Shown here: piece by piece, positions 35,154 through 52,804 of the stretch | Layout: each line of letters begins with the position of its first letter | Numbering within the stretch: the first letter of the stretch is position 1 | Source of the DNA: Natrarchaeobaculum sulfurireducens | GTDB taxonomy: Archaea; Halobacteriota; Halobacteria; Halobacteriales; Natrialbaceae | NCBI RefSeq assembly: GCF_003430825.1 | Contig: NZ_CP024047.1 | Coordinates: 1,798,001-1,862,000 of the forward strand | Length of the DNA stretch: 64,000 nt | Reading direction: 5' to 3' | Position numbers and translations under genes: made by a program | The notes under the pieces: generated by a model | The model's database searches: none | Told to the model about the DNA's origin: nothing | The model's input: only the letters and a program-made list of their open reading frames with translations

Positions 35154-36152
35154 GTGAGTGACGAACGCCGATACGCATCCCGACGGAAGCTGCTCGCTGC
35201 GACCGGTTCGCTGACCGCACTCGGACTCGCCGGCTGTCTCGGTGACGAAGAGGGCGACGAGCCAGAGCCTGCCGACGACGGCGATGATGACCACGACGAT
35301 GATGATCATGACCATGACGACGATCACGACCACGACGACGGGGTCGCCGACGAGTACTTCGACGAGCTTGGCGTTGCCGACGAAGGATTCGTGATCCTCG
35401 ACCGGGCCCACGATCCCCACGAAGAGGTCGCGTACGTCCACGGCGACCACTGGCACGGCGACCTGCCGTCGATTCCCGTCGACGACAACGTTTCGATCGG
35501 TGCCGAGATCGAACTCGAGGATGGCGACGAACTCGAACTCGGCGACGAGTACGAACTCCGCGTCGCCGTGGCCCCGGACGAACCCGAGGGTGTCGTCGGC
35601 ATCGACGAGGACGACTACCACGGCGACCACGTTCACATCCACGGCGAACAGGAGGGTGTGACCGAGGTCGTGTTCATGATCTGGCACGACGACCACGCTG
35701 ACTACCAGAGTCCGCCGATCACGGCACAGGTCGTCGAGGAAGACGACGATCACGACCACGACCACGACGACGAGTACGTCAGTGAGTTCCAGCTCTTAGA
35801 CCGGGCCCACGACCCACACGAGGAGATCTCCTACGTCCACGGCGATCACTGGCACGGCGAGGACGACTTCCCGACGATCCCCGTTGGCGATAACGTCTCG
35901 ATCGGAGCCGAACTCGAGGACGCAGATGGTGACGAGATCGTCCTCGGCCCCGAGTACGAACTCGGCGTCGAACTCGCGGACGGTGCCGAAGAAGGTGTCG
36001 TCGAGATCGACGAGGACGAAGACTACCACGGCGACCACGTTCACATCCACGGCGAGTCCGCCGGGGAGACCGAGGTCGTCTTCACGCTCATCCACGACGA
36101 CCACGTCGACTACGAGACGCCGGCGCTCACCGTCACCGTTGGCGACGACTGA
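35154..36152 (+). CDS. Lipoprotein with two HWH/GDHVH domains and His-Asp linker
   Basis: 332 residues from GTG 35154. Signal ASRRKLLAATGSL with twin Arg and lipobox Cys28 (LAGC). A linker of about residues 37-63 is almost only Asp, Glu and His (for example DDDHDDDDHDHDD), itself a likely low-affinity metal sponge. Then two domains of about 115 residues, about 60 per cent alike, each with HDPHEE-x-YVHGDHWHG, DYHGDHVHIHGE and HDDH. A second short His/Asp linker (DDDHDHDHDD) joins them. Lying 200 bases upstream of a Znu-type ABC transporter whose binding protein carries the same domain, it is probably an external metal chaperone. Metal and affinity are inference. Confidence 0.88.
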   Translation: MSDERRYASRRKLLAATGSLTALGLAGCLGDEEGDEPEPADDGDDDHDDDDHDHDDDHDHDDGVADEYFDELGVADEGFVILDRAHDPHEEVAYVHGDHWHGDLPSIPVDDNVSIGAEIELEDGDELELGDEYELRVAVAPDEPEGVVGIDEDDYHGDHVHIHGEQEGVTEVVFMIWHDDHADYQSPPITAQVVEEDDDHDHDHDDEYVSEFQLLDRAHDPHEEISYVHGDHWHGEDDFPTIPVGDNVSIGAELEDADGDEIVLGPEYELGVELADGAEEGVVEIDEDEDYHGDHVHIHGESAGETEVVFTLIHDDHVDYETPALTVTVGDD

Positions 36153-45002: not shown

Positions 45003-45076
45003 GGGCCGGTAGCTCAGTTAGGCAGAGCGTCTGACTCTTAATCAGACGGTCGCGTGTTCAAATCGCGCCCGGCCCG
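45003..45076 (+). tRNA. tRNA-Lys (anticodon CUU)
   Basis: 74 bases fold into a complete cloverleaf: acceptor stem GGGCCGG/CCGGCCC with discriminator G, D arm with AGCTCAGTTAGGCAGAGC, anticodon stem TCTGA/TCAGA with loop CTCTTAA (anticodon CTT), variable loop, and T arm with GTTCAAATC. No intron. The last 23 bases occur again downstream. Confidence 0.95.
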
Positions 45077-45220
45077 TATTCTCGCCGCGAGCAAGTCCGC
45101 GAGCGGCGAGTCTCGGAACCGGCGGGGTTTGAACGCAGGGAGGGTGCGCGCAGCGAGAGCGCGGTCGCTCTGCGAACGCGATTGCGAACGGCGACGCCGT
45201 GAGCGAGCACATCCGACCGT

Positions 45221-45243
45221 GTGTTCAAATCGCGCCCGGCCCG
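45221..45243 (+). repeat. Duplicated tRNA-Lys 3' end (att-site scar)
   Basis: GTGTTCAAATCGCGCCCGGC followed by CCG is identical to 45054-45076, the T-loop and acceptor 3' half of the tRNA gene, 167 bases downstream. Tyrosine integrases that target tRNA genes leave exactly this direct repeat. No integrase is present between or near the copies, so the element has been lost or trimmed. The remaining gap 45244-45571 shows no gene. Confidence 0.65.
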
Positions 45244-45571
45244 CTTTCGACACGAACAACTTCGTGGGTGGCAAAACGGTCTCGCGTTGTAGTAGACGAG
45301 TCGCAGTCCGCACAGCCGAGCGAGGCGAGCAGGTACGTCTCGGCGCAGTTCACAGTCGCACCTAGCCCGCTTCACGACCTCCTCGGCCGAGCTATGTGGT
45401 CGGACGGTTCGTCCGATATGGAACTAATGGAGACCACACAGTTCCTTGCGGTGTCGACCGACAGTACGCGGTGTCCGAACTGACCCACACAGATGAGGCG
45501 CTCAGACTGCCATCTACAGCACCCACAGTAGCGACCACCGTTCGGGGCGAACGGACTGAAAGACTGGTGTT

Positions 45572-52021: not shown

Positions 52022-52120
52022 TTCGACCCATCGGTCGGTGACGCTGTCTGGTTGTGTTTTCGTCCGCAAGCCACCGCAAGCAACACCGTTGTGATCCGCA
52101 TTGCCGTTCGTCGTAACGCA

Positions 52121-52804
52121 ATGACTCACGAGTTCACCAACGATGACATCGGGAAGACAGTTATCAACGCAAACGACGAGGAGGTCGGCATCGTGGCGGA
52201 CGTCGAACACGGTACAGCTCACGTCGAACCCGATCCGGGAATCGCAGACACGATCAAGGCGAAACTCGGCTGGGGCGGAACGGACGAGAACGCCTATCCA
52301 CTCCAGGAGGGATCGGTGGCACAGGTTACCGACGACGCGGTCCACCTCCGGAGCGACCTGTCCGGAACCGGGACGGACGCCGGAACGACCGGCAGGACAA
52401 CCACGGATACGGATCCAACTGGCGGCCGGACCGACACCGACATCGATACCGACGAGACAACCGGCACCGACGTCGGCGCCGGGACGACCGGCAGTGCTGG
52501 AGCCGGGACGACGGATCACGGGACCGACATCGGCGACGACCTGATCGGTGACGACGATGAGGGGCTACTGGACGATGATGAGGGCCTGATGAACGACGAC
52601 GATGAGGGCCTGATGAACGACGATGATGAGGGCCTGATGAACGACGACGATGAGGGCCTGATGAACGACGATGATGAGGGCCTGATGGACGACGATGACG
52701 ACGACCTGATCGGTGATGACGACGAGGGTCTACTGGACGACGATGATGAGGGGCTAACCGACGACGATGACGACGATGACCTGATCGGCGACGAGGGATA
52801 CTGA
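52121..52804 (+). CDS. PRC-barrel-like protein with acidic 8-residue repeat array
   Basis: 227 residues from ATG 52121. The first 80 residues (FTNDDIGKTVINANDEEVGI, VADVEHGTAHVEPDPG) look like a PRC-barrel. The middle is Thr/Gly/Asp-rich, then a run of near-identical octapeptides DDDEGLMN (four in tandem) with GLLDDDDE and DLIGDDDE variants. Upstream readings add nothing. No signal peptide. Function unknown; the array may bind divalent cations. Confidence 0.78.
   Translation: MTHEFTNDDIGKTVINANDEEVGIVADVEHGTAHVEPDPGIADTIKAKLGWGGTDENAYPLQEGSVAQVTDDAVHLRSDLSGTGTDAGTTGRTTTDTDPTGGRTDTDIDTDETTGTDVGAGTTGSAGAGTTDHGTDIGDDLIGDDDEGLLDDDEGLMNDDDEGLMNDDDEGLMNDDDEGLMNDDDEGLMDDDDDDLIGDDDEGLLDDDDEGLTDDDDDDDLIGDEGY
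52535..52800 (+). repeat. 24-bp tandem repeat inside the acidic protein gene
   Basis: The unit GATGAGGGCCTGATGAACGA + CGAC (24 bases) recurs four times exactly or nearly from about 52577 to 52680, with diverged units on both sides. It keeps the reading frame, so copy-number change by slippage would lengthen or shorten the protein without frameshift. Confidence 0.8.

What the first reader, a model, noticed from the sequence alone, without database searches (positions are those of the whole stretch)
45003..45243. tRNA-Lys 3' end duplicated 167 bases away: integration scar
23 bases of the tRNA gene (T-loop to discriminator) recur exactly at 45221-45243. This is the direct-repeat signature of tRNA-targeting integrases. 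Almost nothing is left between the copies, so the element excised imperfectly or was deleted.
Basis: partly seen in the sequence, partly recalled or inferred. Interest (0 to 1): 0.55.

Follow-up and report, generated by a model that had tools for sequence, protein, structure and literature searches.

The report
Haloarchaeal tRNA-tail hairpin cassettes
The repeated end of this lysine tRNA gene is not the scar of one lost element but one example of a recurring kind of short, strongly folded DNA unit that sits behind many tRNA genes in salt-loving archaea, each unit ending in a copy of its own tRNA's tail.

Summary
The interpretation, a one-off scar, is not supported. Copies of the tRNA-Lys 3' end lie about 100-235 nt behind both tRNA-Lys genes in many haloarchaeal genera, with no element between them. 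In the window's own genome 19 of 41 tRNA genes, of many isotypes, carry a copy of their OWN 3' end 87-180 nt downstream. Pooled: 121 of 234 tRNA loci, against 5 of 1170 with another isotype's end; non-halophilic archaea 0 of 33. The copied block runs from the T-loop to the discriminator. Between tRNA and copy lies a structured unit: hairpin A, an inverted arm complementary to the tRNA's T-arm, hairpin B with a recurrent AGTCGC..CGTCT core, then the copy. Units gain, lose and shift position as blocks bounded at the copy. Real integrase elements insert upstream of these units. The window holds one intact and one decayed unit. Best reading: a Halobacteriales family of gene-less tRNA-tail cassettes, probably spread by recombination at the T-loop att core. 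Mechanism and function are inferred. I found no description of it in the open papers I searched.

The parts
45003..45076 (+). tRNA-Lys (anticodon CTT), intact
   Evidence: ARAGORN; Rfam tRNA 67.9 bits
45054..45076 (+). D1: 3' tail of the tRNA (T-stem end, T-loop, T-stem 3' strand, acceptor 3' strand, discriminator), the repeated block
   Evidence: boundary profile
45077..45113 (+). Hairpin A of unit 1: 8-bp stem, tandem G.A mismatch, 2-bp stem, loop
   Evidence: class test
45119..45136 (+). Inverted arm I: imperfect reverse complement of the tRNA T-arm/acceptor (..CCGGCGGGGTTTGAACGC)
   Evidence: class test
45137..45220 (+). Hairpin B of unit 1, an extended B1-type version closed by I pairing with D2
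45221..45243 (+). D2: exact copy of the tRNA 3' tail, end of unit 1
45244..45279 (+). Hairpin A of decayed unit 2
   Evidence: read by eye (weakly folded there)
45299..45340 (+). B-core of decayed unit 2 (AGTCGCAG...ACGTCT)
   Evidence: pattern hit G000:C3:1843299-1843340
45348..45369 (+). D3: decayed copy of the tRNA 3' tail (GTTCACAGTCGCACCTAGCCCG)

Best explanation
The repeat is the boundary of a gene-less, strongly folded unit about 120 nt long (hairpin A, inverted T-arm, hairpin B, tRNA-tail copy). It belongs to a Halobacteriales family of such units that stand alone or in short tandem arrays directly behind many tRNA genes. Each unit ends in a copy of its own tRNA's tail from the T-loop to the discriminator. 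SHOWN: the recurrence, the isotype specificity, the sharp block boundary, the fold, the gain, loss and shift of units as blocks cut at the tail copy, and that integrase elements lie between the tRNA and the unit. INFERRED: units enter and leave by recombination at the T-loop core (a tRNA-targeting tyrosine recombinase acting in trans, and/or homologous recombination between tail copies), so the displaced original tail becomes the downstream copy, as in tRNA-targeted integration. The inverted arm is then kept complementary to the local tail by quasipalindrome correction or by selection on a single-strand fold.
For: 19 of 41 tRNAs of the own genome carry a self-matching tail copy; none of the other 36 distinct tRNA tails matches as well there, and the remaining 22 tRNAs have at least 7 of 21 mismatches. 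Pooled 121 of 234 vs control 5 of 1170. Further samples: G195 10 of 27, G127 4 of 30, three non-halophilic archaea 0 of 33. Block boundary at the T-loop and discriminator: non-Lys identity 0.34 at -23, 0.93-1.00 from -21 to -2, 0.89 at -1, 0.61 just after. Inverted arm closer to its own tRNA than to others in 36 of 36 classes. Tandem-G.A hairpin A in 71 of 132 distinct segments vs shuffled mean 1.6, max 4, and 1 on the antisense strand. Non-Lys units mean RNA z -3.15. At the orthologous locus 25 of 68 have no copy, 31 one, 12 two; 41 of 48 shifted-position matches start within 3 nt of the tail copy and only 1 of 48 continues to its left. Elements sit between tRNA and unit in L093 and L206 and probably L265.
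Against: No recombinase, circular form or mobility was observed. A search with the window unit found nothing in plasmids, the lysine tail and one B2 pattern found nothing in viral contigs, and the HF2 attP region shows no unit by eye. Recombination between 21-nt direct repeats could explain gain and loss without an integrase. B-core hairpins also occur away from tRNA genes (2 sites in G000; L271, L273, L275, L285), so the core is not strictly tRNA-bound. Only 21 of 44 non-Lys units show the tandem-G.A hairpin A by my strict rule. Presence differs strongly between genomes (4 of 30 in G127).
Confidence: 0.5

Rival explanations
1. Functional RNA: tRNA plus unit are co-transcribed, and the folded tail (A, I-B-D) works in 3' processing, termination or regulation. 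I can pair either with the tRNA's own tail or with the copy, as in a 1-2-3 attenuator, so the copy protects tRNA folding.
For: Structure is on the sense strand (window z -4.2 vs -1.6; 98 of 134 units more stable on the sense strand). The tandem G.A is kept while stems change (24 distinct 4-bp stems). I tracks the own tRNA. In silico, removing D lowers native tRNA-tail pairing in 29 of 67 units and raises it in 10.
Against: I-D mismatches are not clearly biased to wobble pairs (114 G.U-type vs 90 A.C-type). Many tRNA genes and many species have no unit. In the fold test 28 of 67 are unchanged and native pairing is low even with D (mean 0.28 vs 0.17). No expression data were available.
Confidence: 0.25
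2. Scar of one lost integrative element at this tRNA-Lys.
For: The block has the extent of an att core; an integrase element uses this core in G057.
Against: The same unit architecture recurs at many tRNA genes and species. The two integrase-type insertions read at tRNA-Lys have no A-I-B ends of their own and lie upstream of a unit. The spacer is a conserved fold, not debris.
Confidence: 0.04
3. Old neutral tandem duplication of tRNA tails, homogenised by gene conversion; the inverted arm arose by template-switch (quasipalindrome) mutation and nothing is selected.
For: Repeat-mediated deletion between short direct repeats is described in Haloquadratum (PMC3119063, passages seen). I-D symmetry does not favour RNA.
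Against: Recurrent AGTCGC..CGTCT core at many different tRNA types; tandem G.A hairpin far above shuffles; units as conserved as a coding gene between genera in many pairs (pairs chosen for high unit identity).
Confidence: 0.15

Closest known systems
E. coli tyrT tandem repeats / RtT RNA (Rfam RF00391; the biology is recalled, not read)
   Same: Tandem units behind a tRNA gene, each carrying a piece of that tRNA's 3' end.
   Different: The RtT model finds nothing in this genome (its control rings only in E. coli). From memory, RtT concerns one tRNA gene; here many tRNA types are involved, each with its own tail and an inverted arm that tracks it.
tRNA-targeted att sites of archaeal tyrosine integrases (SNJ2, SSV families and others; review PMC8371274, passages seen)
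   Same: Direct repeat from the T-loop to the tRNA 3' end.
   Different: No gene inside, 73-235 nt long, a conserved folded spacer, tandem arrays, and genuine integrase elements lie upstream of the unit.
Partial tRNA remnants next to full tRNAs in Haloferax gibbonsii LR2-5 (PMC7921747, passages seen)
   Same: [quoted passage not shown] probably the same phenomenon.
   Different: The passages I saw describe no unit, fold, inverted arm or order-wide pattern; the paper's supplement was not read.
Integron cassette arrays (attI/attC; recalled)
   Same: Works like: tandem units bounded by a recombination site and ending in an imperfect ssDNA-type hairpin.
   Different: No gene in the cassette; no integron integrase was looked for or shown; each site matches its tRNA tail rather than a shared core.

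Membership tests
Scar of a tRNA-targeting integrative element | Direct repeat of the tRNA 3' part, T-loop to 3' end | tested here: met
Scar of a tRNA-targeting integrative element | Integrase gene or other element remains between or near the copies | tested here: not met
   167-nt spacing with no element gene; nearest PF00589 domain about 93 kb away
Scar of a tRNA-targeting integrative element | Locus- and strain-specific event rather than a recurrent unit | tested here: not met
RtT RNA (RF00391) | Match to the covariance model | tested here: not met
   0 matches; control rings only in E. coli
RtT RNA (RF00391) | Tandem units carrying the tRNA's own 3' end | tested here: met
Any RNA family of Rfam 15 | Match above the gathering score in the unit | tested here: not met
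   window: only the tRNA; 8 loci with B-core: none
Integron cassette array | Units cut precisely at the recombination site when gained or lost | tested here: met
   41 of 48 start within 3 nt, 1 of 48 extends left
Integron cassette array | Integron integrase acting on a folded single strand | not testable with these tools
   needs a biochemical assay

The most novel reading that the evidence does not exclude
Haloarchaea carry a new class of minimal, gene-less mobile unit: a folded single-strand cassette that integrates at the T-loop of tRNA genes, takes on the tail sequence of whichever tRNA it enters (including a matching inverted arm), and builds integron-like arrays behind many tRNA genes, possibly with a role in tRNA 3' processing or as a landing pad for viruses and plasmids.
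Probability: 0.3. Interest if true: 0.85.

Novelty: new variant of a known kind. Interest (0 to 1): 0.62.

Why it matters
If right, many of the 'partial tRNA / integration scar' annotations in haloarchaea are a recurrent folded unit, not debris. It would bear on an old question: why tRNA tails are duplicated and used as integration sites. It gives a testable system (Haloferax genetics) with natural variants: the same tRNA with none, one or two units in close species. It also warns against reading short tRNA-tail repeats as proof of a lost prophage.

Tried and rejected
Unit as attP/attL leftovers of integrase elements: rejected, because the two insertions read at tRNA-Lys lack A-I-B ends and lie upstream of a unit and the HF2 attP region shows none by eye. 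PBS-like reverse-transcription origin: not tested; considered unlikely because the copies end at the discriminator without CCA (seen). Kink-turn or attC identity of the hairpins: considered by eye only, not claimed. Wobble asymmetry of I-D mismatches: inconclusive. 1-2-3 switch test in silico: weak. Alignment A2 was spoiled by a whole 1.2-kb locus and was not used; no covariance model was built. Phage search with the whole tRNA plus spacer gave only bacterial-phage tRNA matches among the rows listed. Literature: searches found no description of the units; only open-licence papers are held, and supplements were not readable.

Full report
OBSERVATION. The tRNA-Lys(CTT) gene is at 45003-45076. 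Its last 23 bases recur exactly at 45221-45243. Only two other exact repeats of that length exist on the + strand of the window, both inside ORFs. A third, decayed copy is at 45348-45369.

NOT A SINGLE SCAR. A search of 61 genomes (own plus 60 relatives) matched the locus in all of them. Reading the loci showed copies of the tRNA-Lys tail about 100-235 nt behind both the CTT and TTT genes in many genera. The gene upstream of the window's tRNA-Lys was used to fetch 80 orthologous loci with names: 77 of 80 hold tRNA-Lys. Of the 68 with at least 600 nt downstream, 25 have no copy by my rule, 31 one and 12 two.

NOT ONLY LYSINE. In the window's own genome Infernal finds 45 tRNAs. I could read 41 of them with downstream sequence. 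19 of 41 carry a copy of their own 21-nt tail (at most 5 mismatches) 87-180 nt downstream; no other tRNA tail of the genome matches as well in those 19. The other 22 have 7 or more mismatches. Pooling all loci then held gives 121 of 234 (Lys 91 of 139, others 30 of 95) against 5 of 1170 with a tail of another isotype. That pool includes 30 loci fetched for the B-core motif, so it is not unbiased. The samples not chosen for units are G000 (19 of 41), G127 (4 of 30) and G195 (10 of 27). For the last two, the 30 best-scoring of 45 and of 43 tRNAs were fetched; one G127 case, Arg-CCT at +73, does not look like a unit. Three non-halophilic archaea of the same phylum gave 0 of 33 (controls 0 of 150, 0 of 135, 3 of 165).

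ANATOMY. Between tRNA and copy lies a unit of 73-235 nt, median 122, in 136 units. Its order is: hairpin A directly after the tRNA; an inverted arm complementary to the tRNA's T-arm and part of the acceptor; hairpin B, often with the core AGTCGC[A/G]...CGTCT; and the tail copy. The copied block has sharp edges: identity of copy and tRNA is background up to -23, 0.93-1.00 from the T-loop to -2 in non-Lys units, 0.89 at the discriminator, and drops to about 0.6 right after (130 ungapped units, 44 non-Lys; 28 of the 44 exact). The inverted arm fits its own tRNA better than other tails in 36 of 36 isotype/core classes, mean percentile 0.105. In the first, stricter ungapped test on G000 alone the mean percentile was 0.25. 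Hairpin A with a tandem G.A occurs in 71 of 132 distinct segments, against 1.6 in shuffles and 1 on the antisense strand, with 24 different stems; only 21 of 44 non-Lys segments pass the strict rule. The window's unit folds with z = -4.2 on the sense strand and -1.6 on the other.

DYNAMICS. Orthologous loci differ between close species. Natrinema thermotolerans and N. mahii share hairpin A but differ in B from the inverted arm on. Halobellus species carry none, one or two copies. When a unit stands at a different array position in two species, homology starts within 3 nt of the tail copy in 41 of 48 pairs and continues to the left of it in 1 of 48. These are blocks bounded by the tail copy. 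(The alignments could not start earlier than the copy; the left-side test is the informative one.) Units in different genera are often as similar as the neighbouring gene region (49 of 98 pairs; pairs were chosen for at least 80% unit identity).

INTEGRASE ELEMENTS ARE SEPARATE. In G057 a 3.7-kb insertion with a tyrosine integrase (Pfam PF02899, PF00589) lies between tRNA-Lys and its displaced tail, and an ordinary array follows the displaced tail. Haloterrigena H1 looks similar, with a far copy at +1319 and a decayed unit behind it. L265 shows a tRNA-Phe-like tail followed by a unit with no tRNA in the stretch read. So the units are not the ends of such elements. The window's genome has 12 Phage_integrase matches (10 above the cut-off), none in the window and none within about 93 kb of this tRNA.

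DISTRIBUTION. A strict B-core pattern hits 19 of 24 genomes of the order and 5 of 124 other genomes of the phylum; those five, and at least one of the 19 (G133), look like chance. Of 30 loci read, 14 have a tRNA 57-348 nt upstream on the same strand. B-cores also occur without a tRNA: two in G000 and several inside another, larger repeat. The core is thus not exclusive to tRNA genes, which I cannot explain.

MECHANISM. The block extent (T-loop to 3' end) is what tRNA-targeted integration produces, because the incoming unit restores the tRNA tail and displaces the old one (established for tyrosine integrases; PMC8371274, passages). I therefore favour recombination at that core as the way units arrive and leave. 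The recombinase is inferred, and homologous recombination between tails could do part of it. Two results are not settled between DNA and RNA: the sense-strand fold with conserved G.A pairs points to a single strand being recognised (RNA or folded ssDNA), while mismatches of the inverted arm are not clearly wobble-biased (114 vs 90). A simple folding test of a protective switch is weakly positive (29 better, 10 worse, 28 unchanged of 67).

KNOWN OR NEW. Rfam has no family for the units and RtT does not match. The only printed trace I found is a sentence on partial tRNAs next to full copies in Haloferax gibbonsii (PMC7921747, passages). I found no description of the unit in searches, which cover open-licence papers only.

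Noticed in passing
52571-52665: Exact tandem DNA repeat inside ORF 52052-52804, coding an acidic repeat (DDDEGLMND...).
   Followed up: no
35613-35647 and 36021-36055: Exact repeat inside ORF 35154-36152 (duplicated HDPHEE..YVHGDHWHG stretch), followed by an ORF that looks like a metal-binding lipoprotein and ABC transporter genes.
   Followed up: no
G000:C3:2866975-2867188 (L153): tRNA-Gly-CCC is followed by a second, weak full-length tRNA-like gene (41 bits) whose tail matches it: a whole-tRNA version of the tail copy.
   Followed up: no
L271, L273, L275: The same B-core hairpin sits inside a long GC-rich repeat away from tRNA genes in one haloarchaeal family.
   Followed up: partly
L093 6304-7362: Tyrosine integrase of a 3.7-kb element inserted at tRNA-Lys in G057, a candidate enzyme acting on this att core.
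   Followed up: partly
   Followed up: yes
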